64,000 bases of DNA from Gammaproteobacteria bacterium (GTDB lineage: Bacteria > Pseudomonadota > Gammaproteobacteria > Eutrophobiales > Eutrophobiaceae). Under the pieces are notes generated by a model. That model saw only the letters and a program-made list of their open reading frames with translations, ran no database searches and was not told where the DNA came from. Shown piece after piece: positions 9,940-44,282 of this stretch. Made by a program: the position numbers and the translations under genes. Positions within the stretch are counted from its first letter, which is position 1. Every line of letters starts with the position of its first letter. The stretch lies in contig JACPSH010000053.1 of NCBI GenBank assembly GCA_016193395.1, positions 1 through 64,000 on the forward strand. The letters are read 5' to 3'.

Positions 9940-10275
9940 CGTCCCTTCTACACCGTGGAATCCGGGCTAAGCGTCCTTCGGACCCTTCCCCGGATTGACG
10001 GAATACTATCTTCGCACGTCGGCTTTGCACCGTGGATTCCGACGGGGTCGTAGAAAGGCGGCGTTATTGCCACTCTCGCGGCACGAAGGCTAGATTCCGG
10101 ACCCTTCCCCGGCATACGCCGGCGTCGGTCCGGAATGACAACGCAATTTGGCAGGATGGCCGCTCCCGGCCATCCCTGGCCTCCGCGGCACCTGCACTTC
10201 CATGTGCAATGAATCCGGCCCCACAAATAGGGATTCGGGCCGTGCCCGCTCCGCGGGCCCACCCGGAATGAGGGA
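9940..10275. repeat. Cluster of degenerate palindromic repeats in the lpdA-nrdA spacer
   Basis: The 840-bp spacer between lpdA and nrdA holds no convincing gene. Its first half carries repeated palindromic units: CACCGTGGAATCCG (9951-9964) recurs with one change at 10028-10041; the 15-mer CGGACCCTTCCCCGG occurs at 9979-9993 and 10098-10112. Hairpins: 10094-10136 (10-bp outer stem ATTCCGGACC plus inner CCGGC/GCCGG), 10154-10175 (9-bp stem) and 10244-10258 (6-bp stem GCCCGC). They resemble the REP-like 'attccgg...ccggaat' repeats common in proteobacterial intergenic DNA. Confidence 0.6.
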
Positions 10276-19558: not shown

Positions 19559-20446
19559 TCACGCGCCCAGGTGGTGCAGCAACAGGCTGGCCGCAGTGAG
19601 ATCCGCACTGGTGCCAGGATTCATGCCGGTGTCTTTCAGCTCCCTGTCATATTCCAGCAGCATCGAAACCGCGCTGCCGGGGTTCTTCTTTTTTTCGAAC
19701 CGCTTCAGCACATCCGCGGTGCGACCGCAAATCCGCCGGGCGACGTCGGCGCCGAACTTCCTCTGGATATGGGAATCCGGGTATTCCGCCAGGAAGCGGA
19801 GATAACAGCCGGCCGTGGCCCATTCTACACTATTCCATCGGGCCAGAAATTCTCCCAGCCAGGGCAATCCGCAGCCCCAGATTTCCATAAATCCGTTCGC
19901 ATACTGGCGGGCAACGAGGTCCCTGTCCGCGGCTTCCTGCATGGCCTCGAGCAGGCTGCAGTCCGGCTCGCGATAGACGTCATGCCGCCCGCTCCGGCCC
20001 AGCCCGCCAGGCTGGGCCAACCGTATGGCGGCAAACACATCCCGGGAATCGTCGTTGTGCAGTGCACCCAAAACCTCCGTCAGGACAGGCTGGATCTGTC
20101 CTGCCTCGGCACTCGCTTCACAGGCCCGCAGAATGGGCGCATAGAGCAGCACGATACCGAGGTTGGTGTTGGTGCCTACCGCCCTTCGGGTCGCCTCGAT
20201 CGCGCCAAGCACGCGCCGGCCGACCGATGCGCCGGAGTCACACAGCGGCCCGGCACTGGCCTCGGCGCTGGTGATGAAATCCTCATAACGCATGCCATGG
20301 CCGCCGGAGAAGCGGTGAATATTGCCGGGCTTGAGGGCATCCACTTCCCCGATCAGGCTCGCGAGCACCGTACGCCTCAGTTCGTCCGGCGCGTAACGCC
20401 CTGGATGTCCGGAGGGTGATGAACGGTTTCCTGGCGCCGGAATCAT
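19559..20446 (-). CDS. CitG/MdcB-like protein of the C1 cluster
   Basis: A 295-residue protein related to triphosphoribosyl-dephospho-CoA synthase (CitG/MdcB). Shared features: [21 protein letters not shown] near residue 35, DFITSAEAS, and [14 protein letters not shown] near 100. CitG itself makes the prosthetic group of citrate lyase, but no lyase genes are here; CitG-like genes are recurrent in bacterial H4MPT clusters and are suspected of a cofactor-synthesis step. It lies between mch and fae. Start ATG at 20446 gives a start 16 bp after the mch stop; a GTG three codons earlier is an alternative. Confidence 0.75.
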
Positions 20447-20462
20447 CTCCCGCACACCCGGG

Positions 20463-21443
20463 TCAGCCGAATTCGCGCGTGAAGGACTGGTTGAGCTGAT
20501 CCAGATTGACCGCCCCGCCATAAAAGGAACGGCCGGTGCGCAGCGAACTGACCGTGACGCAGGCCGGACTGAACAGCAGCGGATCGATTTTGTAGAAGTC
20601 GTAATTGGCTTCCTTGAATCTCTCGCCGAACGGCTTTCCGTAATCCTTCGAGGCCGAACTCGGGAGCGTGCGCGCCAGTTCCCCGGCGGCGGCGTCCTCC
20701 GCATCCACGTATAACTGCACCTGCCCGCCGAACAGGATCGCGTCGTTGGCGCGGCTCATGGCGGTGAGCCGGTTCGGGGACGGCGGACACAAGGGCGCGC
20801 TGCCAGCGCCATCCACGATGCACTCCAGCGGAAACTTGAGCGTATGGGCCTTGTGCAGCGCCGTCTCGAGCACGCGCGAGACGATCTGCACGGCTCCCGC
20901 GAGGCTGGAAGTCGGAGTCAGGATCAGGGTCAGTTGACGCGCGGAGATCCTGCACTGGTTGGCGATTTCCTCGGCAAGTTCGACGGGTGGAATACGATCC
21001 ACTTCGAGCACGAGGCAGGCGGACTCCGCCTGATCCCGATAGCCGAGTTCATGGAACAGCTGCTCGTTGCTGCCGACGGCCCGGCCCGGCCCCGAGCCCA
21101 GCGCCCGGAACGCCTGCTTGCCCTGCCCATGGACCAGGCTCCAGCCAGCATATTGACTGCCGAGACAGGCGAGCACCGGCTGCGAGGTATGCACATCCAC
21201 GTGCCAGGACCAGTGCTGAAAATGGGTAGAGGCGCGCAACCGCACGGTGCCCAGGCCGCCAAGGCAGATTTCCGCGATCCGGCGCCCGGCCTCGAGGCCG
21301 CCGGGGGTGTGTATGCCCGCATCGATAATGCGCGTGCCATCCCCGATCGTTGTGACGTCCAGCCGGAGAGCGGTGCTGGATTGGACCAGGTCTTCGACCA
21401 GGGGCCGGGTCAGTTGATTGATGCCGGGTCGCGTTGCAGCCAA
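20463..21443 (-). CDS. mch: Methenyl-H4MPT cyclohydrolase
   Basis: A 326-residue homologue of archaeal Mch, which hydrolyses methenyl-H4MPT to 5-formyl-H4MPT. Family segments: TTIGDGTRIIDAGI, HVDVHTSQPVLACLGSQYAG, ALGSGPGRA, GAGSAPLCPPSPNRLTAMSR and NYDFYKIDPLLFSPA. Length matches the family. The start codon is TTG, preceded by an AGGGAG ribosome site, and lies 30 bp after mtdB. Together with MtdB upstream and Ftr of the divergent operon it forms the central part of the pathway. Confidence 0.96.
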   Translation of the reverse strand: MAATRPGINQLTRPLVEDLVQSSTALRLDVTTIGDGTRIIDAGIHTPGGLEAGRRIAEICLGGLGTVRLRASTHFQHWSWHVDVHTSQPVLACLGSQYAGWSLVHGQGKQAFRALGSGPGRAVGSNEQLFHELGYRDQAESACLVLEVDRIPPVELAEEIANQCRISARQLTLILTPTSSLAGAVQIVSRVLETALHKAHTLKFPLECIVDGAGSAPLCPPSPNRLTAMSRANDAILFGGQVQLYVDAEDAAAGELARTLPSSASKDYGKPFGERFKEANYDFYKIDPLLFSPACVTVSSLRTGRSFYGGAVNLDQLNQSFTREFG

Positions 21444-22437: not shown

Positions 22438-23457
22438 TCACCGCCGACCTGACTTCCCAGACACCGCCGCGTCCATGCGCACATCCGCCGGGACGTTTCG
22501 TGCGCGGCATGATACAAAATCGAGCCCCGGGTCGTCAGCGTATCCCGCGCGCAGATCCCTCAGGGCCTGGAACGCGCCGGTTTCGCTTGCGAAGACCGCA
22601 AACCCGGTCGGCCCCCAGGAACTCTGCCCGATGCCGGCCGCTCCGAGATCTTTCAGCTTCAGCAGGGCCTGCGCCACATCGGGGCTGCTGAACCTGCCAC
22701 TCTGGGCCGCGGCAAAACAATCGCCGATGATTTCCTGTACGCGCGTGACGGCGGCGCCAAAGGCCGCGCAGTCGCGCTCGGCGAGGGCCGGCAGCAGGCG
22801 CATCATGACGAGCCGGCACACTTCCCCGGAATGGGCCTCCGACATGGCGCCGAGCCGCGCGAAGGCGTCCCGTTCCCCTTCCCCGGAAAGTCCCTGGCGC
22901 CGGCTGTCCATGATCAGCAGGAAACGCCAGGCATCCGGCACGGTCATGCGGCAGACTACCGGGGGCGTACCGGAGTCCGGCCCGCGACCGCCGTCGACAA
23001 TGAATCCGCCTTCCGCGAACGTGCCGATCCCGACCCCGGATCGCCGGCCACGATCGAGAAAGGCGGCGATCTCCTCGCACCGGTACGCAAGCCCATGCAG
23101 CCGGGACAGGGCCGTACCCACGGCAAGCGCCAGTTGCGTTCCCGAACCCAGGCCGGCGTGCTCGCGGATCGCGCGCCGGATCTCGAAGCGCACCCCGCCC
23201 TGGAGACCCGCGGCCGACATGAATTCCCGGGCATACTGCAGGGCGCGATCCGCTCCAGACCCCACCGCGCTGACCGTGTCTGCCTTCGTCGCCGTCAATT
23301 CCGTGCCCATGCCGTCGATGCTGAGGCCAAGGCTCCCAAAGCGCCGGCCGAGCCCGCCGTGCAGATCGAGGAACCCCAGATGCAGGCGCGCCGGCGCATG
23401 AATATGGACCGTGGCCGGCGGCGGCGAGGATCGGGAGGACTTGACCGGGGGATTCAC
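22438..23457 (-). CDS. mptG: Beta-ribofuranosylaminobenzene 5'-phosphate synthase
   Basis: A 339-residue GHMP-kinase-fold enzyme that condenses p-aminobenzoate with PRPP and releases CO2, the first committed step to the arylamine of H4MPT. Motifs: HIHAPARLHLGFLDLHGGLG near the N-terminus, EHAGLGSGTQLALAVGTAL as the glycine-rich loop near residue 105, GRRSGVGIGTFAEGGFIVDGG near 140 and GQSSWGPTGFAVF near 285. The start is GTG at 23457. First gene of the minus-strand operon, divergent from the fwdD-fhc operon. Confidence 0.93.
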   Translation of the reverse strand: MNPPVKSSRSSPPPATVHIHAPARLHLGFLDLHGGLGRRFGSLGLSIDGMGTELTATKADTVSAVGSGADRALQYAREFMSAAGLQGGVRFEIRRAIREHAGLGSGTQLALAVGTALSRLHGLAYRCEEIAAFLDRGRRSGVGIGTFAEGGFIVDGGRGPDSGTPPVVCRMTVPDAWRFLLIMDSRRQGLSGEGERDAFARLGAMSEAHSGEVCRLVMMRLLPALAERDCAAFGAAVTRVQEIIGDCFAAAQSGRFSSPDVAQALLKLKDLGAAGIGQSSWGPTGFAVFASETGAFQALRDLRAGYADDPGLDFVSCRARNVPADVRMDAAVSGKSGRR

Positions 23458-23645: not shown

Positions 23646-23999
23646 ATGCCGGAAATCATGCTGCTCATAGCCGGGCGCACCAGCGACCAGGGGACGTCGC
23701 TCAACAGGGGAAAACTCAAGGAAGAGTACCTGCAGGTGACGTCCACGGTGGAAATGAACGAGGACGACATGGCACGGCTCGGACTGCAGGCCGGCGATCG
23801 GATCCGGCTGAGCAACGATACCGGTGAGACCACGGTGACCTGCCAGCCACGCAAGCGCACCGATCTCCCCGCGGGGATGCTGTTCATGGCTTACGGACCG
23901 AGCTCGAGCCAGCTGATGGCCAGTGACACGGCGGGCACCGGCATGCCGATTTCCAAGAACTTCACGGTGCAGATCGAAAAGATCACTGGCGCCGCCTGA
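23646..23999 (+). CDS. FwdD-like molybdopterin-dinucleotide-binding subunit (formyl-MFR dehydrogenase subunit D)
   Basis: A 117-residue protein with the small beta-barrel MGD-binding domain that forms the C-terminal part of formate dehydrogenase-like enzymes and is a separate subunit (FwdD/FmdD) in methanogens. Seen: LLIAGRTSDQGTSLNRGKL, LKEEYLQVTSTVEMNEDDM, LGLQAGDRIRL, PAGMLFMAYGPSSSQL and DTAGTGMP, which match the FwdD pattern along its length. Start ATG 23646 has a GGAG site; the longer frame from 23523 does not look coding. It precedes the FwdB-like gene by 25 bp. The characterised bacterial formyltransferase/hydrolase complex has no such subunit, so its presence argues for a bound Mo/W cofactor. 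Confidence 0.85.
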   Translation: MPEIMLLIAGRTSDQGTSLNRGKLKEEYLQVTSTVEMNEDDMARLGLQAGDRIRLSNDTGETTVTCQPRKRTDLPAGMLFMAYGPSSSQLMASDTAGTGMPISKNFTVQIEKITGAA

Positions 24000-24024: not shown

Positions 24025-25413
24025 ATGGACGATAAGGTCAAAACCGCGGAGACCAGCTCCGGACACGTCAAGGTCGTGGAAAACGCCACCTGCACGTTCT
24101 GCGGATGCGTGTGCGACGACATGGTGCTTACCGTCGACCTCGACCAGAAGAAGATCACCAAGGCCAAGAACGCCTGCGTGCTCGGCCGCGCCTGGTTCGC
24201 CGAGCATGTTCATGAAGACAATGTCCCGCCGGCCCTGCTCGACGGCCAGCCCGTCTCCGTCGAGGCGGCCATCGAGGAGGCGGCGCGCATCCTGGTCGAA
24301 GCGCGTTTTCCGATCACCTATGGCCTGAGCGATACGACCTGCGAAGCGCAACGCGAGGCCGTGGCCATCACGGACATGATCCGGGGCAACCTGGATACCA
24401 CGACGTCGGTCTGCCACGGCCCCTCCGGCCTGGCGTTCCAGGGAATCGGCGAAAGCACGATGACGCTGGGGGAAGTGAAGAACCGCGCCGATCTGGTCAT
24501 TTATTGGGGCGGAAACCCGGCTGAATCGCATCCGCGCCACTTCACCCGTTACGCGGTTACCCCGAAGGGGATGTTCACGCCCAACGGCAAGAAGGACCGA
24601 TACGTCGTTCTGGTGGACGTGCGCCGCACGCCAAGCGCCCCGGTGGCCGACCTGTTCCTCCAGGTCAAGCCAGGACACGACTTCGAGCTTGCCTGGGCCC
24701 TTCGGGCGCTCGTGCGCGGGCGCCGGCTTGATCCAGGCATTGAAGAGGCCACCGGCATCCCGTTGGCCACGCTGACCGATCTCGCCGCGCGCATGAAATC
24801 ATGCCGCTACGGCGTGCTTTTCTTCGGCATGGGACTGACCATGACGCGCGGCCGGCATTTCAATTCCGGCGCCGTGCTGGCGCTGGCGACCGATCTCAAC
24901 GAGTACACGCATTTCGTCGCCAAGCCGGTGCGCGGGCACGGCAACGTGACCGGGGCCGATAACGTCGTGTCGTGGCAGACCGGTTTCCCCTTCGGCGTGA
25001 ATTTCAGCCGCGGTTTCCCGCGCTTCAACCCGGGGGAATTCACCACCGTGGATACGCTGTCGCGCGGGGATGCCGATGCTGCCCTGATCGTCGCGAGCGA
25101 CCCCGCCGCCAATTTCCCGAAGGCGGCCATCGAGCACCTGGGCCGCATCCCGGTCATCAGCCTGGATGCCAAGGAAACGGCGACCAGCCGCCTGGCGCGC
25201 GTCGCCTTCCGCACGGCGACCTACGGCATCAGCGTCGCGGGGACCGTCTATCGCATGGACGACGTGCCGATCACGCTGCGGACGGCCTTCGAATCCAAGC
25301 TTCCCTCGGATGAGGACATCCTCACCGCATTACGCACCCGCATCAAGGCGCTGCTCCTCGCGCGCGGCCAGGCCGCGAAGTCGAGAAGCGCCGCGACCAG
25401 GACGGCAGCCTGA
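24025..25413 (+). CDS. fhcB: FwdB-like subunit, catalytic Cys-His motif retained (cluster 1)
   Basis: A 462-residue homologue of the molybdenum/tungsten subunit of formylmethanofuran dehydrogenase. The N-terminus has the 4Fe-4S motif Cys23-x2-Cys26-x3-Cys30 with Cys51 (TCTFCGCVCDDM, then KNACVLGRAWF). At residues 129-134 it carries VCHGPS; Cys130-His131-Gly132 (codons 24412-24420) correspond to the metal-ligand Cys and neighbouring His of FwdB and to the Sec/Cys-His-Gly of formate dehydrogenases. VKNRADLVIYWGGNPAESHP and LFLQVKPGHDFELA continue the FwdB likeness. The second copy in this window lacks the motif. I infer a functional redox subunit working with the FwdD-like protein. Confidence 0.9.
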   Translation: MDDKVKTAETSSGHVKVVENATCTFCGCVCDDMVLTVDLDQKKITKAKNACVLGRAWFAEHVHEDNVPPALLDGQPVSVEAAIEEAARILVEARFPITYGLSDTTCEAQREAVAITDMIRGNLDTTTSVCHGPSGLAFQGIGESTMTLGEVKNRADLVIYWGGNPAESHPRHFTRYAVTPKGMFTPNGKKDRYVVLVDVRRTPSAPVADLFLQVKPGHDFELAWALRALVRGRRLDPGIEEATGIPLATLTDLAARMKSCRYGVLFFGMGLTMTRGRHFNSGAVLALATDLNEYTHFVAKPVRGHGNVTGADNVVSWQTGFPFGVNFSRGFPRFNPGEFTTVDTLSRGDADAALIVASDPAANFPKAAIEHLGRIPVISLDAKETATSRLARVAFRTATYGISVAGTVYRMDDVPITLRTAFESKLPSDEDILTALRTRIKALLLARGQAAKSRSAATRTAA

Positions 25414-25440: not shown

Positions 25441-27114
25441 TTGAAGAGCCATAACAGCACCCCGGCCGGCGCAGCCGGCCCGATCCGGATCGTCAATGGC
25501 CGGATCCATGATCCGGCGAACGGCATCGACGGCGCGGTCCGGGACCTATGCGTCGAAAGCGGCCGCATCGTCGAATCGGCACCGGTCGGCGCGCGCCGGA
25601 TCGACGCCGCGGGCATGGTCATCATGCCGGGCGGTGTGGATATCCACTGCCACATCGCCGGACCCAAGGTCAATCTCGCGCGGAAACTGCAGCCCGAGGA
25701 TCACCGCCGCGACCCGCATCCCGGAACCCTGTACACGCGCTCCGGCACGGGCGGCACGGTCCCGTCCACGTTCGCGACCGGCTACCGTTACGCGAGCCTG
25801 GGCTATACGACGGCGATGGAGGCGGCCGTCCCGCCCATCGGCGCGCGGCATACGCTGGAGGAACTGCACGACACGCCCGTCATCGACAAGGGGTTCTATG
25901 TCCTGCTCGGGAACAACATCTTTCTGCAACGCCTTCTCAAAGAGGGGCGACGCGACGAATTCCGCCAGGCCGTCGCGTGGTGGGTCAATTCGACCAAGGC
26001 CTACGCAACCAAGCTCGTGAACCCGGGCGGCGACGAACCGTGGAAGGGCAAACGCAACGCCAACGTTTCGGATATCGACGAAACCAACGAGGTATTCGGG
26101 ATCAGCCCGCGCCAGATCATTGACGCCTTTGTCGATGCCGTGCACGAGATGCGCCTGCCGCACCCGCCCCACATCCACTGCAACAACCTCGGCCACAGCG
26201 GCAACTACGCGACCACGCTCGAAACCATGAAGACCGCCGGCGATCGTCGCCTGCACATCGCCCATATCCAGTTCCACAGTTACGGCGGCCAACCGGGAAA
26301 GAGCCCTTCCTCGGCGGCGCAGCCGATCGTCGAGTACGTCAACGCCCACCCGAACATCACCTGCGACGTCGGCCAGGTGATGTTCGGCAAGTCGACCATC
26401 ATGACCGCGGACGCCCCGCTGGCCTACATGCTGCGCAACCTGAAAAAGAACAAGTGGGTCAACGCGGACACGGAATGCGAGAGCGGCTGCGGCATTGTGC
26501 CGTTCAGCTACCAGGAAAAAATCTACGTTCACGCCCTGCAATGGGCCATCGGGCTGGAGCTGTTTCTGATGTCGGCGGATCCCTGGCGCATCATCCTCTC
26601 CACCGACCATCCGAACGGCGGCTCCTTCCTGAGCTACCCCAAACTGATCCGCCTGCTCATGGATCGCGAATTCCGGAAGGAAGAAATCAAGCGCGTGCAC
26701 AAGAAGGCAATCAGCCGCACGGTGCTCGCGGATCTCGACCGGGAATACACCTTGAACGAGATCGCAATCATCAGCCGCGCCGGTCCGGCGCGCGCGCTCG
26801 GCCTCCGGAACAAGGGGCATCTCGGGCCCGGAGCCGATGCGGACATCACCGTCTACGACGACGATGCGGATCGGGAACGGATGTTCAACGCGCCGCGATA
26901 CGTCGTGAAGTCGGGCCGCGTCGTGATCGACGACCATGAATTCCGGGAGGATTTCAGCGGCCGCCTGCTGCACATCGCCCCCGAATACGACGCCACGATC
27001 GTCCAGACCGTGCGTCCGTTCTTCGAGGACTACTACTCCATCGAGTTCGACAATTACGCCGTCGGCGATTCCTTCCTGCATGACCATGAAGTCATTCCAT
27101 CGCGCCCGGCCTGA
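25441..27114 (+). CDS. fhcA: Formyl-MFR hydrolase/dehydrogenase subunit A, amidohydrolase (cluster 1)
   Basis: A 557-residue FwdA-type metallo-amidohydrolase that interconverts formyl-methanofuran and formate plus methanofuran. Binuclear metal ligands: GGVDIHCHIAG (HxH, about residues 67-69), Lys in ATKLVNPGG (carbamylated in the family), His in HIHCNNLGH, His in AHIQFHSYGG and Asp in ILSTDHPNGGSF. The only start codon in the open frame is TTG at 25441; the frame is otherwise bounded by the stop of fhcB. About 47 percent or more of obvious blocks are shared with the second copy at 32050-33711 by eye, so the two are clear paralogues or homologues. Confidence 0.94.
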   Translation: MKSHNSTPAGAAGPIRIVNGRIHDPANGIDGAVRDLCVESGRIVESAPVGARRIDAAGMVIMPGGVDIHCHIAGPKVNLARKLQPEDHRRDPHPGTLYTRSGTGGTVPSTFATGYRYASLGYTTAMEAAVPPIGARHTLEELHDTPVIDKGFYVLLGNNIFLQRLLKEGRRDEFRQAVAWWVNSTKAYATKLVNPGGDEPWKGKRNANVSDIDETNEVFGISPRQIIDAFVDAVHEMRLPHPPHIHCNNLGHSGNYATTLETMKTAGDRRLHIAHIQFHSYGGQPGKSPSSAAQPIVEYVNAHPNITCDVGQVMFGKSTIMTADAPLAYMLRNLKKNKWVNADTECESGCGIVPFSYQEKIYVHALQWAIGLELFLMSADPWRIILSTDHPNGGSFLSYPKLIRLLMDREFRKEEIKRVHKKAISRTVLADLDREYTLNEIAIISRAGPARALGLRNKGHLGPGADADITVYDDDADRERMFNAPRYVVKSGRVVIDDHEFREDFSGRLLHIAPEYDATIVQTVRPFFEDYYSIEFDNYAVGDSFLHDHEVIPSRPA

Positions 27115-29284: not shown

Positions 29285-30664
29285 ATGGGCAGGATTGGGA
29301 GTGAAGACAACCCCCTGCGCGTCGCGATCGTCGGCAGCGGACCCAGCGGCTTCTATGCGACCGAGGCGCTGCTCAAGGCGGGCCTGCGGGTGCGCATCGA
29401 CATGCTGGAGCGCCTCCCGGTCCCGTTCGGGCTGGTGCGCAGCGGAGTCGCGCCGGATCATCCCAAGCTGAAACAGGTGATCGAGGTGTATGCCAGGATC
29501 GCCGAAACACCGGACTTCAACTACATCGGCAATGTCACGGTCGGACGCGACATTTCCATCGACGAGCTTCGCGCCAGCCATCATGCGGTCATCTTCACCT
29601 GTGGCGCCGAATCGGATCGTAACCTCGGCATCCCGGGCGAGTCGCTCACCGGCAGCCACACGGCGACGGAATTCGTGGGCTGGTACAACGGCCATCCTGA
29701 CTATCGCGATCGCACATTTGACCTCACTCACGACACGGCTATCGTGATCGGTCAGGGAAACGTCGCGGCCGATGTCGCCCGCATCCTCGCCAAGACCGGA
29801 CCGGAGCTGGCCCACACCGACATCGCCGAACACGCGCTTGCCGTTCTGGCCGAAAGCAGGGTCCGCACCGTCTTCGTCATCGGCCGGCGCGGGCCGGCGC
29901 AGGCCAAGTTCACGCCCAAGGAGCTGCGTGAGTTCGGCGAACTCGAACATTGCGACGCCGTCGTCGACGAAACGGAACTGGAGCTGTACGACGCGAGCCG
30001 CCAAGAACTGGACGACAAGACGAACCCGGGCGCGCGCAAGATCTACGAGCAGTTTCGCGAATTCGCGACCCGGCGCGTATCGGGCAAATCACGCCGAGTG
30101 ATCTTCACTTTTCTCAAGAGTCCCGTGGAACTGCTCGGCGACGGCAAGGTCGCCCGGGTGCGGCTGGAGAAGAACGTGCTTTCGGGCGAACCGTACAGTC
30201 AGAGCGCGCGCGGCACCGGCGTGACGATGGAGATCGATGCGGGCATCGTGTTCCGCAGCATCGGCTACAAGGGAGTGGCGATCCCCGGAGTGCCGTTCGA
30301 CTCCAGGAACGGCGTGATCCCCAACGCCGACGGACGCGTTACGAAGGCGGGCGCTGCCTTGCCGCAAGTCTATGCCGCCGGATGGATCAAGCGGGGACCG
30401 ACTGGTATCATCGGCACGAATCGGGCCGACAGCGTAGCGACGGTCAATTCGCTTCTGAACGACGTGGCGGCATTCGATTCCAGTTCCGCAAAGCGCGGCG
30501 CCGACGCGGTCTACGATCGTCTCCGTAGCAAAGGTATCCGATACGTCACATTTTCCGATTGGAAGGTATTGGACAAGCGTGAAATTGACAGAGGCCGGCC
30601 CAAGGGAAAGCCGCGGGAAAAATTCACCCGCGTACAGGAAATGCTGGCCCAGCTGGACCAGTAA
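29285..30664 (+). CDS. Ferredoxin-NADP reductase, FprA/adrenodoxin reductase family
   Basis: A 459-residue FAD enzyme of the glutathione-reductase-like FNR group. FAD site RVAIVGSGPSGFYATEALLK; PVPFGLVRSGVAPDHPKLK is diagnostic of FprA/adrenodoxin reductase; the NADP fold is VIGQGNVAADVARIL; GWIKRGPTGIIGTNRADS near residue 380 is the other family block. In mycobacteria FprA works with 7Fe ferredoxin, and here the two genes are neighbours, so electrons from the ferredoxin can be exchanged with NADP(H). The ATG at 29285 is preceded by a poor ribosome site. Last gene of cluster 1. Confidence 0.93.
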   Translation: MGRIGSEDNPLRVAIVGSGPSGFYATEALLKAGLRVRIDMLERLPVPFGLVRSGVAPDHPKLKQVIEVYARIAETPDFNYIGNVTVGRDISIDELRASHHAVIFTCGAESDRNLGIPGESLTGSHTATEFVGWYNGHPDYRDRTFDLTHDTAIVIGQGNVAADVARILAKTGPELAHTDIAEHALAVLAESRVRTVFVIGRRGPAQAKFTPKELREFGELEHCDAVVDETELELYDASRQELDDKTNPGARKIYEQFREFATRRVSGKSRRVIFTFLKSPVELLGDGKVARVRLEKNVLSGEPYSQSARGTGVTMEIDAGIVFRSIGYKGVAIPGVPFDSRNGVIPNADGRVTKAGAALPQVYAAGWIKRGPTGIIGTNRADSVATVNSLLNDVAAFDSSSAKRGADAVYDRLRSKGIRYVTFSDWKVLDKREIDRGRPKGKPREKFTRVQEMLAQLDQ

Positions 30665-30770: not shown

Positions 30771-32045
30771 ATGCCCGTCGCCACGACCATAACGTTCAAG
30801 AATGTCGTTTGTCCATTCTGCAGCCTGTTGTGCGACGACCTGGCTGTGTCGCTCAAGGATGGACGCCTGAAAGCCGGGCATGGCGCCTGTCCTCTGGCCA
30901 GGCATGGACTCGAATACACGGGTACCGCCCTTTCCCCGCACGTTGACGCTAAACCAGTCCCCTATGTGGATGCACTGGGCCGGGCCGCGCAGATCCTGCG
31001 AAGCGCCCGACAGCCGCTGGTGGGCGGCATGGGAACCGATGTCCGGGGTTGCCAGGCAGCCGTGGCACTGGCGGAGCGTTGCGGTGCCGCCGTCGACCAC
31101 ATGCACAGCGATGCCGCGCTCTGCAACACCTTCGTGTTGCAGAGCCGCGGCGGGATGCTGACCACGTTGACCGAATTGCGCAACCGCGCGGACCTGATCG
31201 TTTTTGTCGGCACGGATGCGCTCGCGACCCATCCGCGCTTTTATGAGCGATGTGTCTGGCCGTCCAGCGCCCTGATAACTTCGAGACTGAAAAGCAGGCA
31301 GATCATATACATAGGCGATAAACTCAAGACCCGTCATGGGACCGGCCGGGGGCGGAGAGGCGCACAGCTTGTCGCCTGCAACCGTCACGAGATCGCGGAC
31401 ATCCTCGGTGCCCTGCGGATGCTCCACCGCGGCCGCAACCCGGCCACCACGGGGATTATCACCCGTGCCCGCCTCGCGCAACTGAACGAAGTGGTACGAC
31501 GTCTGCGTGCGGCGCGATACGGCGTCCTGGTTTGGTCGGCGGCGGAACTGGACCCGACGAACAGGGAACTCGTCATACAGGCGATCAGTGAGCTCGTGGT
31601 CGCGCTCAACGAAACCACTCGATTTGCCGGCTTGGCGCTTGGAGGCGCGGACGGCGGAACCTCCTCAGCGAACGTCTGCGCGTGGCAGACGGGTTTCCCC
31701 GGGCGCGTGAACTTCACGGCCGGCAAGCCGGAATTCGATCCAGAACTGTACCGTGGCCGGACCATGCTGCAATCCGGTATGGCGGACGCGCTGCTGTGGA
31801 TCTCCAGTTTCGGGACGGATGCGAAACTGCCCGTAACGCAGGTGCCGACGATTGCCCTGACGCGTCCCTCGCAGCGTGTCGCGCGATCCGCTAAAGTCTA
31901 CATCCCGGTCGGAACGCCCGGCGTCGACCATGACGGCTCGCTGTTCCGGCTGGACGGCGTCGTCAGTCTGCCGTTGCGTGGATTGCGGACGCCGCAGATG
32001 CCGTCCGTAGCCCACGTGTTGACGCAGCTTCGTGAGCGGCTGTAG
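30771..32045 (+). CDS. fhcB: FwdB-like subunit lacking the catalytic Cys-His (cluster 2)
   Basis: A 424-residue FwdB homologue. The N-terminal cluster motif is kept: Cys14-x2-Cys17-x3-Cys21 and Cys40 (VVCPFCSLLCDDLAV, HGACPLARHG). Aligning TLTELRNRADLIVF with the cluster 1 protein without gaps puts Asp114-Ala115-Ala116 where cluster 1 has Val-Cys-His, so the metal-ligand Cys and its His are gone. This is the state expected for the hydrolytic Fhc complex of Methylobacterium-type methylotrophs, in which the B subunit is not a redox catalyst. No FwdD-like gene accompanies this copy. It starts 106 bp after the reductase gene. Confidence 0.9.
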   Translation: MPVATTITFKNVVCPFCSLLCDDLAVSLKDGRLKAGHGACPLARHGLEYTGTALSPHVDAKPVPYVDALGRAAQILRSARQPLVGGMGTDVRGCQAAVALAERCGAAVDHMHSDAALCNTFVLQSRGGMLTTLTELRNRADLIVFVGTDALATHPRFYERCVWPSSALITSRLKSRQIIYIGDKLKTRHGTGRGRRGAQLVACNRHEIADILGALRMLHRGRNPATTGIITRARLAQLNEVVRRLRAARYGVLVWSAAELDPTNRELVIQAISELVVALNETTRFAGLALGGADGGTSSANVCAWQTGFPGRVNFTAGKPEFDPELYRGRTMLQSGMADALLWISSFGTDAKLPVTQVPTIALTRPSQRVARSAKVYIPVGTPGVDHDGSLFRLDGVVSLPLRGLRTPQMPSVAHVLTQLRERL

Positions 32046-32049
32046 TCCC

Positions 32050-33711
32050 GTGCTGGTGCGGCTGAAAGGCGCGGTGGTCTACGATCCGATGCACGGGATC
32101 GACGGCAGGCGCATGGACCTGTTCATTCGCGACGGCATCATGGTTCCGGCGCCGCGAAGGGACACCCGGATCGATCATACCTATGATGTCCGCGACCGCA
32201 TCGTCATGGCCGGCGCCATCGATATCCATACCCACATCGGTGGCGGCAAGGTCAATATCGCCCGCGCGCTGTTGCCGGAAGATCACATGCCGTATGCGGT
32301 CCAGGGCAGCCCGATCCTGCGCGCCGGCTCCGGCCACGCGGTCCCCACCAGCTTCATCACGGGATACCGTTACGCGGAGATGGGATATACGGCATGCTTC
32401 GAGCCGGCCATGCTGCCCGCCAACGCCCGTCACGCGCATGCGGAGATGGCGGATGTCCCGATCGTCGATACCGGAGCCTACGCGCTCCTCGGCAATGACG
32501 ATTTCCTGCTGCGCCTGCTCGCCGGCAAGACCGGCCAGAAGGTGATTAACGACTACGTGGCGTGGATCGTGAACGCGACACACGCGCACGGCGTCAAGGT
32601 CGTCAACCCAGGCGGGATCAGCGCATTCAAGTTCAACCAGCGAGATCTCGACCTCGATGTCCGGCATGAACATTACGGCGTATCGCCGCGGAGGATCCTG
32701 AAGGCCCTCGCACGCGCGGTGCATGAGCTCGGGATCTGCCACCCCCTGCATGTGCATGGCTGCAACCTGGGCGTGCCCGGAAACGCCGAAACCACGTTGA
32801 AAACCATAGCCGCGGTCGAGGGACTTCCGTTGCACCTCACCCATGTGCAGTTTCACAGCTACGGGCGAGAGGGTGATCGCGGGTTCTCATCCGCCGCCGC
32901 GCGCATTGCGGAGGCGGTCAATTCCAACCCCAACATCTCCATCGACGTCGGACAGGTCATGTTCGGACAGACCGTCACGGCATCCGGCGATACCATGCTG
33001 CAATACCGCGGCCGCCGCCACGCGCACCCGAAAAAGTGGGTGTGCATGGATATAGAATGCGATGCCGGTTGCGGCGTGGTGCCCTTTCTCTACCGCGATC
33101 ATAACTTCGTCAACGCCCTGCAATGGTGCGTCGGCCTGGAACTGTTCCTGCAAGTCCGGGATCCGTGGCGCATATTCCTCACGACCGACCATCCGAACGG
33201 CGCGCCGTTCACGACTTACCCGCGCCTCATACGGCTGTTGATGGATCGCGCTTTCCGCGCTGAGATGCTGGACCGCATCCATCCTGAGGCGCGTAAGTCC
33301 AGTATCCTGGACAGCCTCGACCGCGAATATTCCCTGGCGGAAATCGCCATCATGACCCGGGCGGCCCCGGCCCGCAGCCTGGGCCTCCAGACGCGCGGCC
33401 ACCTCGGCCGCGGCGCCGCGGCTGACATCACGGTCTATGAGCCGAACCGCAACGCGGAAAGGATGTTTTCAAAACCCGCGCTCGTGTTCAAGGACGGGGT
33501 ACTGGTGGTCCGTGACGGCAAGGTGATCCAATCCACGTCCGGGCAGGTGCATGCGACCCGGCCCGCATACGACCGCGGGATCGAGCGCGTGCTGAAGCAG
33601 TATTTCGATCGCTATCACACGGTGTCGCTGGGCAATTTCCGGATAGGAAGCGATGAACTGCTCGGTTTCGGCCGGTCGGCGATTTCGGTCCATCCCTGCG
33701 TGCCACGGTGA
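32050..33711 (+). CDS. fhcA: Formyltransferase/hydrolase subunit A, amidohydrolase (cluster 2)
   Basis: A 553-residue FwdA-type amidohydrolase. Metal ligands are all present: GAIDIHTHIGGGKVNIARAL, Lys of GVKVVNPGG, His of LHVHGCNLG, LTHVQFHSYG and the Asp of FLTTDHPNGAPF. The likely reaction is hydrolysis of formyl-methanofuran to formate. A GTG at 32050 gives the family N-terminus just after the fhcB stop; another GTG at 32032 would overlap fhcB and cannot be excluded. Formate would be used by the FDH encoded two genes on. Confidence 0.94.
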   Translation: MLVRLKGAVVYDPMHGIDGRRMDLFIRDGIMVPAPRRDTRIDHTYDVRDRIVMAGAIDIHTHIGGGKVNIARALLPEDHMPYAVQGSPILRAGSGHAVPTSFITGYRYAEMGYTACFEPAMLPANARHAHAEMADVPIVDTGAYALLGNDDFLLRLLAGKTGQKVINDYVAWIVNATHAHGVKVVNPGGISAFKFNQRDLDLDVRHEHYGVSPRRILKALARAVHELGICHPLHVHGCNLGVPGNAETTLKTIAAVEGLPLHLTHVQFHSYGREGDRGFSSAAARIAEAVNSNPNISIDVGQVMFGQTVTASGDTMLQYRGRRHAHPKKWVCMDIECDAGCGVVPFLYRDHNFVNALQWCVGLELFLQVRDPWRIFLTTDHPNGAPFTTYPRLIRLLMDRAFRAEMLDRIHPEARKSSILDSLDREYSLAEIAIMTRAAPARSLGLQTRGHLGRGAAADITVYEPNRNAERMFSKPALVFKDGVLVVRDGKVIQSTSGQVHATRPAYDRGIERVLKQYFDRYHTVSLGNFRIGSDELLGFGRSAISVHPCVPR

Positions 33712-33716
33712 GCCAC

Positions 33717-34613
33717 ATGAAGATCAACGGGGTCACCGTTGACAATACCTTTGCCGAGGCCTTCGCCATGAAGGCAACGCGGCTTGTCATCACCGCCATG
33801 ACGCTGAAGTGGGCTTACCGGGCGGCAAACTCCCTCACCGGGTTTGCGTCCTCGGTCATCGCCTGCGGCTGCGAAGCGGACATCGAAAGGGAACTGGGCC
33901 CGGGCGAAACGCCGGACGGCAGGCCGGGAATTGCCGTGATTATGTTCGCGATGTCCAGGAAACAGTTGATGGATCAGGTGCGACGGCGCGTCGGACAATC
34001 GGTCATGACGACCGCCACGAGCGCCTGTTTTGCCGGCAGTCGGAGCGATGACATGATCCCGCTGGGGCGGAGCCTGCGCTACTTCGGCGACGGGTTCCAG
34101 ATCTCCAAGACAGTCGACGGGATCCGCTACTGGCGCATCCCCGTCATGCACGGCGAGTTTCTGTGCGAGGAGTCCACGGGCATGGTGCCCGCCATCGGCG
34201 GCGGCAATTTTCTGGTCATGGCCAAGACTTCACGGCACGGCATTACCGCGTGCGAACAGGCAGTCCGGGCGATCCGGGCGGTACGCGGGGCGGTCACGAC
34301 CTTCCCTGGCGGGATCGTGGGGTCGGGATCCAAGGTCGGCTCGAAATACCGCTTCGTCCCGGCGTCGACGAACGAGGTGTTCTGCCCCACCCTGAAGGGG
34401 CTGGTGCCCACGCAGCTCACCGAGGAAGTGGGATCCGTGCTGGAAATTGTCATCGACGGATTGAATGAGAAGGCGATTCGCGAAGCCATCCGGGCCGGCG
34501 TGCACGCGGTGTGCCGCTTCGGGCCGAAGAAAGGGATTTTCCGCGTCAGCGCGGGAAACTACGGCGGCAAGTTGGGTCCGTACCACTTCCATCTCTGGGA
34601 CATCCTGAAGTGA
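33717..34613 (+). CDS. fhcD: Formylmethanofuran:H4MPT formyltransferase (cluster 2)
   Basis: A 298-residue Ftr homologue: MKINGVTVDNTFAEAFAM, FASSVIACGCEADIERELG, LRYFGDGFQISK, GGGNFLVMAK, VGSGSKVGSKYRF and RVSAGNYGGKLGPYHFHLWD. The ATG at 33717 has GGTGA 6 bp upstream and matches the family start; a GTG at 33708 overlapping the fhcA stop is an alternative. Together with the cluster 1 copy the cell has two formyltransferases, which would let both formyl-MFR complexes draw from the same formyl-H4MPT pool. Confidence 0.95.
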   Translation: MKINGVTVDNTFAEAFAMKATRLVITAMTLKWAYRAANSLTGFASSVIACGCEADIERELGPGETPDGRPGIAVIMFAMSRKQLMDQVRRRVGQSVMTTATSACFAGSRSDDMIPLGRSLRYFGDGFQISKTVDGIRYWRIPVMHGEFLCEESTGMVPAIGGGNFLVMAKTSRHGITACEQAVRAIRAVRGAVTTFPGGIVGSGSKVGSKYRFVPASTNEVFCPTLKGLVPTQLTEEVGSVLEIVIDGLNEKAIREAIRAGVHAVCRFGPKKGIFRVSAGNYGGKLGPYHFHLWDILK

Positions 34614-35449
34614 GCGACGTCACTTTTGAATTGCGCCGTCAGCCGGAGACCTGGCTGGATCTCTCCGCGTTGACGCCGGACAAGCTGCACGGCCACACGC
34701 TCACGGCCATCAAGGCGATCCGCCTGCGTTGCGGCCGCCGCGCCGGAAACGTCGGCGATCTCTTCCAGGTCTCCGGCGACGATCCCCTGTCGTTGAGGTT
34801 CGTCGATGCGTGCCGCAGTTTCGTGCGGCTGGGACACGGCATGACCCGCGGCCGGATCCGTGTCAACGGCCACGCGGGCCACTACCTCGGGCAGGATATG
34901 CGTGGCGGACAGATCACGGTGCGTGGCAGCGCCGGCAACTGGCTCGGAGCGGGCATGTCCGGCGGAAGCATTGAGATTTCCGGTGACGCGGGGGACTTCA
35001 TCGGAGCGGCCGTAGCCGGCGCGATGCACGGCATGACCGGAGGAAACATCGTTGTCGGCGGCAATGCGGGGAAGCGCGCCGCGGACCGCATGCGGCGAGG
35101 GACCATCCTGGTGCTCGGGGACGCGGGTGATTTCGCCGGCTCCCGCATGATCGCCGGCACCCTGCTGATCCTTGGGCTGGCCCGGACGGGCGTCGGATAC
35201 GGAATGCGCCGCGGAACAATAGTCCTCGGACGGATGCCGGCGCACGTGCCTGTCACGTTCAACGACTGCGGCAGGCTTAAAATGGAGTTTCTGCGCCTGC
35301 TGTTCAAGCAAACCGCGGATTCCAGGAAGCGTTTCGGCTACTTTCGCGAATTCGGCCCCGAGGCCCGGCGTTTCGCCGGCGACATCGCCGCCGGCGGCCA
35401 GGGTGAAATCCTCGTGCTGTTGAATGCGTCGCGGCGCCGTTCCGCATGA
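34610..35449 (+). CDS. fhcC: FwdC-like subunit C, beta-helix repeat protein (cluster 2)
   Basis: A 279-residue beta-helix protein with repeats such as GHGMTRGRIRVNGHAGHYLG, GQDMRGGQITVRGSAGNWLG, GAGMSGGSIEISGDAGDFIG and GGNIVVGGNAGKRA. Starts with GTG at 34610, overlapping the Ftr stop by 4 bp (GTGA), and ends overlapping fdhB by 4 bp (ATGA). Structural subunit of the complex. Its extreme C-terminus (residues about 230-279) is longer and differs from the cluster 1 copy. Confidence 0.92.
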   Translation: MSDVTFELRRQPETWLDLSALTPDKLHGHTLTAIKAIRLRCGRRAGNVGDLFQVSGDDPLSLRFVDACRSFVRLGHGMTRGRIRVNGHAGHYLGQDMRGGQITVRGSAGNWLGAGMSGGSIEISGDAGDFIGAAVAGAMHGMTGGNIVVGGNAGKRAADRMRRGTILVLGDAGDFAGSRMIAGTLLILGLARTGVGYGMRRGTIVLGRMPAHVPVTFNDCGRLKMEFLRLLFKQTADSRKRFGYFREFGPEARRFAGDIAAGGQGEILVLLNASRRRSA

Positions 35450-42314: not shown

Positions 42315-44252
42315 TTACGGCAGGCTGAAGACCATCAGCACGCCGCTATTCCGGGAAACGCTCAGCAGCTTGCGATAGCCGCCGACCGCGCCCAGCGCAG
42401 CCTCGTCTGGCGCAGCGGCCAGGCCGGGGATAGCCACCACAGCGCCGGCCCATCCGCCGATACCGGACAGAACGCCGACATACTGCTTGCCCTTATGGCT
42501 CCAGGTGTTGAAGTTGCCGATGATGCCGGACGGCGACTTGAACTTCCAAAGCTGCTTGCCGCTCTTCGCGTCAACCGCCTTGGCATAGGAGTCCAGGGTG
42601 CCGTAGAACACGACATCGCCAGCCGTCGCCAGGACACCACTCCACACGGACCACTGCTCGGGAATCGACCACACGATCTTACCCGTGTCGGCGTTCCAGG
42701 CAATCATGGCGCCCATGTTGTCGGTGCCGTCCTTCATGACCGCGCCTGCCGGATACATGGTCAGGTTCGCGTTCACGAACGCCTGTCCTGCAACGTACTT
42801 GTTGCCGCCCGCCGCGTAGCTGACCGGTTCATAGGTCATGCACACGTGGTTGGTCGGAACGTAGAACAGACCGGTGCGCGGGCTGTAGGCCGCGGGTTGC
42901 TCGTCCTTCGTTCCGAGCGCAGCCGGGCAGACATCCTTGGATACGACATCTTCACCGTTGAAGTCGGTGCTCATGGCGTTGACCACCTGCGGATAACCGG
43001 TCTTCATGTCGACATGCGTCGCCCAGTTGACCGCCGGGTCATACTTTTCCGCTACCAGCACCTCGCCTGTTACGCGGTCTACCGTATAGGCGAAGCCATT
43101 ACGGTCGAAGTGCACGACGACCTTGCGGTCCGCACCCTTGACCTTCATGTCGGCCAGGATCATTTCATTGACGCCGTCATAGTCCCACTCGTCATGGGGC
43201 GTCATCTGATAGACCCACTTCGCCATACCGGTGTCGATGTCACGGGCAAACATGGTCATCGACCACTTGTTGTCGCCGGGACGCACGACCGGGTTCCAGG
43301 TGCCGGGGTTGCCGTTGCCGTAGTACATCAGGTTCTGCTCGAAGTCAGCGGGCCACCAGCCCCATGTTGAACCACCGCCCTGCTTCCACTGATCGCCCAG
43401 CTTGCTGCAAGCACGCTTGCCGGCATCATTGGCACGCAGTTCGTTCTTGTCCCAGTCACCCTCGGCGCACCAGGTCTTCAAGGACGAATCCTTGCCGACC
43501 GGCTTGCCCATGGACATGGTCTTGTTCGGGTCCATCAGGATGTCGCTGTCCGGGCCCATGCTGAACGCACGCCAGGCCAACTTACCATCCTTCAGATTGA
43601 ACGCCGCAATCCAGCAACGCACGCCGAATTCCGCACCGGAACAACCGGTAAATACCTTGTCCTTGATGACATGCGGGGCATTCGTCGTTGTGTTACCGGC
43701 CTTCGGACCATAGCCGATGTCACGGCCATTCTCAGCCTTCCAGGCGACCTTGCCATCCTTCGCATTCAGGGCGACCAACAGCGTGTCGGCCTGCTGCAGC
43801 AGGATCTTGCCATCGCCGTAGGCCAAGCCACGGTTGACGATGTCGCAGCACATCACGGGGACCGTTTCGGCCTCGTTCTGTTGCGGCTCGTAAGCCCAGG
43901 TGATGGTCAGGTCATCCAGGTTGATGGCAAATACGTCGTTCGGGAAAGAAGAATGGATGTACAGGTGATCGCTGCCCAGACCGGTTGCGCTGCCGGGAAG
44001 GACCAGCGGACCACCTTCATGACCTTGCAGGCGTCCCGTAGAGAACGTCCACGCAGTCACGAGTTTGCCGGCGTTCTGATTGTTGATTTGATTCAACTCA
44101 GAGTAACGCCAGTTCCAATAATTGCCACCCGGATAGGCCCAGTAGTTCGGATCCTGCGTCAGCTTTTTGACTCCATCATTTGCAAACGCAGACAGGGACA
44201 CTACCAAGGCCAGAGCGGCAATCATCCATTTTCCAACGGACAATTTACTCAT
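42315..44252 (-). CDS. xoxF: Lanthanide-dependent PQQ methanol dehydrogenase XoxF
   Basis: A 645-residue eight-bladed quinoprotein oxidising methanol in the periplasm. Signal peptide to SAFA (about residue 24). The vicinal disulfide Cys135-Cys136 ([10 protein letters not shown]) faces [14 protein letters not shown] holds the catalytic Asp357 and, two residues on, Asp359, the extra Asp that marks XoxF enzymes and binds the lanthanide; calcium-type MxaF has Ala there. [12 protein letters not shown] and repeated blade tryptophan motifs ([29 protein letters not shown]) are present. The start at 44252 has an AGGAGGAGG site; the frame from 44282 is longer. Clade of XoxF not assigned. Small subunit MxaI is absent, as expected. 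Confidence 0.97.
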
Positions 44253-44282
44253 GACCTCCTCCTCTTTACGTTGGTTAACCAA

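What the first reader, a model, noticed from the sequence alone, without database searches (positions are those of the whole stretch)
23646..23999. Separate FwdD-like MGD-binding subunit encoded before a bacterial fhcB
FwdD supplies half of the bis-MGD cradle in methanogen enzymes. Bacterial fhc clusters of the Methylobacterium type do not have it. The protein matches FwdD over its whole length, including GRT near the start and GTGMP near the end, so it is likely to be functional.
Basis: partly seen in the sequence, partly recalled or inferred. Interest (0 to 1): 0.7.

Follow-up and report, generated by a model that had tools for sequence, protein, structure and literature searches.

The report
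Bacterial CO2-forming formylmethanofuran dehydrogenase with FwdD
A methanol-type gammaproteobacterium encodes the cofactor-binding subunit (FwdD) and every known active-site residue of a methanogen-type molybdenum or tungsten enzyme, beside a ferredoxin and an NADP reductase, so it can probably burn bound formyl groups straight to CO2 and NADPH instead of only releasing formate as textbook methylotrophs do.

Summary
Window 23646-23999 (+) encodes a complete 117-aa FwdD, 25 nt before fwdB. FwdB has the counterparts of Cys118, His119 and Arg288 (M. wolfei numbering) and four [4Fe-4S] cysteines. The operon is fwdD-fwdB-fhcA-fhcD-fhcC-fdxA-fprA. A second, degenerate Methylobacterium-type fhcBADC (FhcB without Cys-His or Arg) plus NAD-formate dehydrogenase lies next to it.

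FwdD occurs in 14, exactly the 14 with a high-scoring FwdB (all Cys-His-Gly), always adjacent. It is absent from all 36 genomes with only FhcB-type proteins.

New beyond the finding: (1) in 12 Methylococcales genomes FwdD is fused to a CysJ-type NADPH diflavin reductase; (2) in the window's relatives the operon nearly always carries FdxA and FprA; (3) Planctomycetota/Acidobacteria homologues carry an in-frame TGA at the ligand codon, probably selenocysteine.

Most likely function: oxidation of formylmethanofuran to CO2 at a Mo/W-bis-MGD centre, electrons going to NADP+. The biochemistry is inferred. FwdD in other bacterial phyla was already known, but a 2016 review states it is absent from Proteobacteria and Planctomycetes.

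The parts
23646..23999 (+). fwdD, molybdopterin-dinucleotide-binding subunit, 117 aa
   Evidence: NF042908 E 5.5e-21; PDB FwdD matches; fold match TM 0.82 to 5t5i_D
24025..25413 (+). fwdB, catalytic subunit, with [4Fe-4S] Cys23/26/30/51, Mo/W ligand Cys130-His131, Arg303
   Evidence: TIGR03129 505 bits; alignment to 9sfi_Q, 8rja_B, 5t5i_B; motif positions
25441..27114 (+). fhcA1/fwdA, amidohydrolase subunit; closer to archaeal FwdA than to Methylorubrum FhcA
   Evidence: TIGR03121 716 bits; 8rja_A 487 bits against 6s6y_A 391 bits
27127..28026 (+). fhcD1/ftr, formylmethanofuran:H4MPT formyltransferase
   Evidence: TIGR03119 430 bits
28023..28832 (+). fhcC1/fwdC
   Evidence: TIGR03122 262 bits
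28885..29190 (+). fdxA, 7Fe ferredoxin of the Azotobacter FdI type
   Evidence: NF045490 E 1.7e-33; PDB 1axq, 7fd1 group
29285..30664 (+). fprA, adrenodoxin-reductase-type ferredoxin:NADP+ reductase
   Evidence: PDB 1lqt FprA E 3e-111, 1cjc adrenodoxin reductase E 2e-104
30771..32045 (+). fhcB2, degenerate: keeps N-terminal cysteines, lacks Cys-His and RGH
   Evidence: TIGR03129 280 bits, below cut-off; motifs
32032..33711 (+). fhcA2, Methylobacterium-type
   Evidence: best PDB 6s6y_A 434 bits
33708..34613 (+). fhcD2
   Evidence: TIGR03119 408 bits
34616..35449 (+). fhcC2
   Evidence: TIGR03122 241 bits
35446..37137 (+). NuoE-NuoF-like fusion, NAD-linked diaphorase of formate dehydrogenase
   Evidence: PF01257 + PF01512 + PF10589
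37121..39871 (+). formate dehydrogenase alpha subunit
   Evidence: TIGR01591 735 bits, over cut-off
22441..23457 (-). beta-RFAP synthase (H4MPT synthesis), divergent from fwdD
   Evidence: TIGR00144 140 bits
21477..22394 (-). mtdB, methylene-H4MPT dehydrogenase
   Evidence: PF09176 E 2e-33
20466..21443 (-). mch, methenyl-H4MPT cyclohydrolase
   Evidence: TIGR03120 384 bits
18970..19479 (-). fae, formaldehyde-activating enzyme
   Evidence: TIGR03126 246 bits
17054..18103 (-). mfnF-like/H4MPT-linked C1 transfer protein (methanofuran synthesis)
   Evidence: TIGR03123 343 bits
15062..15688 (-). mfnE-like kinase (methanofuran synthesis)
   Evidence: NF040622 E 5e-18
42318..44282 (-). PQQ-dependent methanol/ethanol dehydrogenase
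   Evidence: TIGR03075 627 bits

Best explanation
fwdD encodes the subunit that closes the bis-MGD pocket of a catalytically competent bacterial formylmethanofuran dehydrogenase. Steps, with what is shown and what is inferred: methanol -> formaldehyde -> Fae/MtdB/Mch -> formyl-H4MPT (genes shown). FhcD1 passes the formyl group to methanofuran and FhcA1 hydrolyses it to formate inside the complex (families shown, reaction inferred). The formate reaches a Mo- or W-bis-MGD held by FwdB-Cys130 and closed by FwdD, and is oxidised to CO2 (residues shown, metal and activity inferred). Electrons leave through the FwdB [4Fe-4S] cluster to FdxA and then FprA, reducing NADP+ (genes shown, transfer inferred). 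In Methylococcales relatives a CysJ-type diflavin reductase fused to FwdD replaces FdxA/FprA. The second cluster, degenerate fhcB2-A2-D2-C2 plus NAD-formate dehydrogenase, would be the ordinary hydrolytic route with free formate and NADH. The cell thus has two exits for the formyl unit.
For: The catalytic residues of FwdB and FwdA are present. The FwdD fold is matched. FwdD tracks Cys-His-Gly FwdB in 14 of 14 genomes against 0 of 36; 10 of those 14 also carry the FhcB type, whose clusters have no FwdD, while in four only the FwdB type was found, so it is not redundant there. The catalytic FwdBs group with archaeal FwdB apart from all FhcB at 100/100 support. fhcA1 resembles archaeal FwdA best, fhcA2 Methylorubrum FhcA best. 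FdxA and FprA lie next to fwdC in 47 and 46 of 58 sufficiently long loci. The FwdD-CysJ fusion occurs in 12 of 15 FwdD-positive Methylococcales genomes, and the other three have a ferredoxin gene beside FwdD. Formyl-MFR/CO2 lies at -530 mV (PMC11493965), so electron flow to NADP+ is downhill. MobA is present and CdhC absent in the genome. A precedent for a swapped electron partner exists: Fwd of Ca. Ethanoperedens reduces F420 (PMC11493965).
Against: No biochemistry was found for any bacterial member. The metal is unknown. Both FdxA and FprA families also serve other pathways, so their operon position is circumstantial. Methanogens run the enzyme in the reductive direction, and direction here rests on context and potentials. 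FwdF/FwdG, the usual electron wires, are not in this operon. The FwdD model score is below the curated cut-off.
Confidence: 0.7

Rival explanations
1. Relic: FwdD and FwdB are inherited remnants in an Fhc-type hydrolase, structurally needed but without a metal centre.
For: Characterised bacterial FhcB is a scaffold without cofactor (PMC10100899). The same window has such a degenerate fhcB2.
Against: All ligands and the active-site Arg are kept in 14 of 14 genomes while fhcB2-type proteins lost them. FwdD is not kept with FhcB-type proteins alone. In eight Planctomycetota/Acidobacteria loci the ligand codon is TGA with a downstream hairpin, implying a selenol ligand. In four genomes no other complex was found.
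Confidence: 0.08
2. CO2 reduction: the complex runs as in methanogens, making formyl-MFR from CO2 with reduced ferredoxin for assimilation.
For: Same core subunits as the methanogen enzyme and a ferredoxin gene in the operon.
Against: The partner FprA would have to lift electrons from NADPH to -530 mV. No CdhC (CODH/ACS) in the genome. Fae, MtdB and a PQQ methanol dehydrogenase are encoded in the same window, the usual setting of oxidation.
Confidence: 0.15
3. Formate dehydrogenase: FwdBD mainly oxidises free formate rather than formate channelled from formyl-MFR.
For: FwdB is related to formate dehydrogenase and FwdD to its fourth domain (PMC7331816).
Against: A complete NAD-formate dehydrogenase is already encoded next door, and the fwd genes stay in one block with fhcA, fhcD and fhcC in relatives.
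Confidence: 0.07

Closest known systems
Archaeal formylmethanofuran dehydrogenase FwdABCDFG/Fmd (M. wolfei 5T5I, M. hungatei 7BKB, Ca. Ethanoperedens 8RJA)
   Same: FwdD, FwdB with Cys-His/Arg and [4Fe-4S], FwdA, FwdC; same fold of FwdD
   Different: No FwdF/FwdG in the operon; Ftr (FhcD) gene inside the operon; FdxA/FprA or a fused CysJ instead; C1-oxidation context
Formyltransferase/hydrolase complex Fhc of Methylorubrum extorquens (6S6Y)
   Same: Operon block B-A-D-C with Ftr; H4MPT/methylofuran pathway
   Different: Fhc has no FwdD and its FhcB lacks the Mo/W centre; the window's fhcB2-A2-D2-C2 is the true relative of Fhc
Bacterial fwdDBA-ftr-fwdC of Hakuba Actinobacteria, and fwdD of Synergistetes, Firmicutes and NC10 (PMC7325909, PMC5020050)
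   Same: Same gene order D-B-A-ftr-C, catalytic Cys kept (Hakuba)
   Different: Other phyla; PMC5020050 states fwdD is absent from Proteobacteria and Planctomycetes; no FdxA/FprA or CysJ partner is described in the passages read
F420-reducing Fwd of Ca. Ethanoperedens thermophilum (PMC11493965)
   Same: Formyl-MFR oxidation wired to a flavoprotein reductase rather than free ferredoxin
   Different: Archaeal, F420 as acceptor; here NADP+ is predicted, through FprA or CysJ

Membership tests
FwdD (formylmethanofuran dehydrogenase subunit D) | Whole-length match to the FwdD family as a stand-alone protein | tested here: met
   NF042908 residues 6-113 of 117, E 5.5e-21; FwdD chains are the top PDB hits
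FwdD (formylmethanofuran dehydrogenase subunit D) | Fold of FwdD | tested here: met
   Model matches 5t61_D/5t5i_D, E 9e-11, TM 0.82
NF042908 (NCBIfam exception-level model of tungsten FwdD) | Score above the curated cut-off | tested here: not met
   75 bits against 175; only membership of the wider subunit family is claimed
Catalytic formylmethanofuran dehydrogenase (Fwd/Fmd) | FwdB Mo/W ligand Cys or Sec, His, Arg and four [4Fe-4S] cysteines | tested here: met
   Cys130/His131/Arg303 and Cys23/26/30/51
Catalytic formylmethanofuran dehydrogenase (Fwd/Fmd) | FwdA binuclear-metal residues | tested here: met
   His69, His71, Lys191 align with His57, His59, Lys178 of 5t5i_A, and STDHPN with TTDSPN; which residues are ligands is from memory of the published structure
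Catalytic formylmethanofuran dehydrogenase (Fwd/Fmd) | Electron-transfer subunits FwdF/FwdG | tested here: not met
   None among the operon genes; FdxA and FprA instead. Rest of the genome not searched for FwdF/G. Hence 'Fwd-like core with other wiring', not the full methanogen complex
Catalytic formylmethanofuran dehydrogenase (Fwd/Fmd) | Bound Mo/W-bis-MGD and formyl-MFR oxidation/reduction | not testable with these tools
   needs purified protein
Fhc formyltransferase/hydrolase (Methylobacterium type) | FhcB without Mo/W ligands and no FwdD | tested here: not met
   The first cluster has both; the second (30771-35449) fits Fhc
Selenoprotein FwdB (relatives only) | In-frame TGA at the ligand codon plus a downstream hairpin | tested here: met
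   Eight loci, HTSL*HGPT, hairpin beginning 21 nt after the first base of TGA with all seven pairs kept; Sec machinery not tested

The most novel reading that the evidence does not exclude
Gammaproteobacterial methylotrophs have a working archaeal-type Mo/W formylmethanofuran dehydrogenase whose electron wiring was rebuilt at least twice for NADP(H): once by FdxA plus FprA in the operon, once by fusing FwdD to a CysJ-type NADPH diflavin reductase in Methylococcales. They oxidise the bound formyl group directly to CO2 and NADPH, in parallel with the formate-releasing Fhc route.
Probability: 0.55. Interest if true: 0.8.

Novelty: new variant of a known kind. Interest (0 to 1): 0.66.

Why it matters
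The textbook view of bacterial H4MPT-linked methylotrophy is that the archaeal CO2-reducing enzyme became a metal-free hydrolase that releases formate. These genomes, including a USC-gamma and several Methylococcales MAGs, indicate that the dehydrogenase survived or was regained, sits in a C1-oxidising setting, and was rewired towards NADP(H). That changes the expected formate, NADPH and NADH budget of these methane and methanol oxidisers, points to a natural FwdD-NADPH-reductase fusion of interest for CO2/formate biocatalysis, and supplies pairs of dehydrogenase and hydrolase complexes in one genome with which to study how the metal centre was lost.

Tried and rejected
FwdD as a chance or MopB C-terminal fragment: rejected, stand-alone ORF conserved in the family. 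FwdD without FwdB in L054 and L082: FwdD is separated from the operon by transposase-like ORFs (L054) or fused and elsewhere (L082), but both genomes have Cys-His-Gly FwdB. pMMO in the own genome: PF02461 gave nothing, but no control genome rang either, so absence is not shown. Plasmid location: no plasmid record matches. Broken FwdB in Planctomycetota: not a frameshift, a single in-frame TGA at the ligand. The FwdB frame of L090 was unresolved and was left out. Drawing a Planctomycetota sample for an independent co-occurrence test failed because the centre had to be a genome handle. Adam et al. 2019 and Hemmann et al. 2019 are not held, so prior mention there could not be checked.

Full report
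Observation. The ORF at 23646-23999 (+) is a complete 117-aa FwdD. It matches NCBIfam FwdD (E 5.5e-21), Pfam Molydop_binding and archaeal FwdD chains in the PDB over residues 6-113. Its AlphaFold2 model matches M. wolfei FwdD at TM 0.82. The NCBIfam score is below that exception-level model's cut-off, so I claim the subunit family and not that sub-model. The start codon agrees with relatives, and a GGAG lies 8 nt upstream.

Neighbourhood. The + strand carries fwdD, fwdB (24025), fhcA1, fhcD1, fhcC1, fdxA (7Fe ferredoxin) and fprA (adrenodoxin-reductase type). Then comes a second block fhcB2-A2-D2-C2 (30771-35449), followed by an NAD-linked formate dehydrogenase. On the - strand, divergent from fwdD, lie RFAP synthase, mtdB, mch, a CitG-like protein, fae and methanofuran-synthesis genes. 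A PQQ methanol/ethanol dehydrogenase lies at 42318-44282. The genome has MobA, needed for MGD, and no CdhC.

Active site. FwdB has Cys130-His131 and Arg303, at the positions of Cys118, His119 and Arg288 of 5T5I_B, and cysteines 23, 26, 30 and 51 for [4Fe-4S]. FhcB2 keeps the N-terminal cysteines but has lost Cys-His and RGH. FhcA1 keeps the metal-site residues. FhcA1 is closest to archaeal FwdA (487 bits, against 391 for Methylorubrum FhcA), while FhcA2 is the reverse (434 for Methylorubrum FhcA, 397 for archaeal). So the two clusters are different in kind, not recent duplicates. In a tree of 66 sequences the Cys/Sec FwdBs group with archaeal FwdB and all FhcB-type proteins form the other side, 100/100. 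The archaeal rows there are the aligned parts typed, and the FhcB rows have long branches, so only this main split is used.

In 369 gammaproteobacterial genomes drawn evenly, stand-alone FwdD was found in 14 (a 15th match is the C-terminal part of a 966-aa frame). TIGR03129 found FwdB/FhcB in 50. The 14 FwdD genomes are exactly those with a FwdB of at least 490 bits, and coordinates put FwdD next to it each time. All 14 have Cys-His-Gly and RGH; all 16 FhcB-only proteins read have neither. The lowest-scoring FhcB matches were not read residue by residue. If genomes were independent the chance of this split would be about 1e-12; they are related, so this is only a guide. Ten of the 14 carry both types and in four only the FwdB type was found. 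In 14 more FhcB-positive genomes from the phylum draw the only weak FwdD matches were parts of 780-960 aa frames. The 80 named loci are selected by FwdD and so cannot test the rule alone, but 78 have FwdB beside FwdD. For the other two, Cys-His-Gly FwdB is elsewhere in the genome.

Distribution. FwdD is in 19 of 24 other genomes of the window's family. Named carriers include Thiotrichaceae UBA4486, RIFCSPLOWO2_02_FULL_61_13, USCg_Taylor, Ca. Porisulfidus, Methylothermaceae, Methylococcaceae, two Alphaproteobacteria MAGs, Planctomycetota, an Acidobacteria and a Caldisericota MAG. [quoted passage not shown] fwdDBA-ftr-fwdC was reported in Hakuba Actinobacteria (PMC7325909). A 2023 survey counts 149 bacterial FwdB (PMC10100899). 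The open-access searches found no description of FwdD in Proteobacteria, but key subscription papers could not be read.

Electron partner. In 58 loci with sequence well beyond fwdC, FdxA is near in 47 and FprA in 46. In the Methylococcaceae-centred order draw, 15 of 301 genomes have FwdD. In 12 of these FwdD is the N-terminal domain of a 730-760 aa protein (one cut short by a contig end) whose remainder is CysJ, the NADPH flavoprotein of sulfite reductase (TIGR01931 E 2e-217 for L082). In ten of the 12 the fusion lies divergent from a Cys-His-Gly FwdB on the same fetched stretch. The remaining three genomes have an unfused FwdD between a ferredoxin gene and FwdB. Two unrelated NADP(H)-linked solutions at the same enzyme make NADP+ the likely acceptor. 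With formyl-MFR/CO2 at -530 mV (PMC11493965) this direction is strongly downhill. Ca. Ethanoperedens Fwd feeding F420 is a biochemical precedent for swapping the partner.

Verdict. Shown: presence, residues, co-occurrence, synteny, fusion. Inferred: metal, activity, direction, NADP+. It is a new variant of a known enzyme, not a new kind.

Noticed in passing
L076, L079, L082, L084 (FwdD at 10001) and L153-L164: FwdD fused to a CysJ-type NADPH diflavin reductase in 12 Methylococcales genomes, mostly divergent from a Cys-His-Gly FwdB. Not found described in the papers searched.
   Followed up: partly
L095:10913, L096:8911, L097:11031, L099:5546, L100:9059, L101:11037, L102:1691, L103:3085: Planctomycetota/Acidobacteria FwdB have a single in-frame TGA exactly at the Mo/W ligand codon (HTSL*HGPT) with a conserved hairpin 21 nt on: probable bacterial selenocysteine FwdB.
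   Followed up: partly
window 30771-32045 and FhcB2 of L025-L053: The degenerate FhcB2 of this group keeps CxxCxxxC, whereas FhcB of several other gammaproteobacteria (L118-L122) has lost it too (SPFCGIASDD): possible stages of cofactor loss.
   Followed up: no
L054:8636-14163: FwdD flanked by transposase-like ORFs that separate it from the fwdB operon; the genome keeps a Cys-His-Gly FwdB elsewhere.
   Followed up: partly
window 19562-20446 (-): CitG-like (triphosphoribosyl-dephospho-CoA synthase family) gene between fae and mch in the H4MPT cluster.
   Followed up: no
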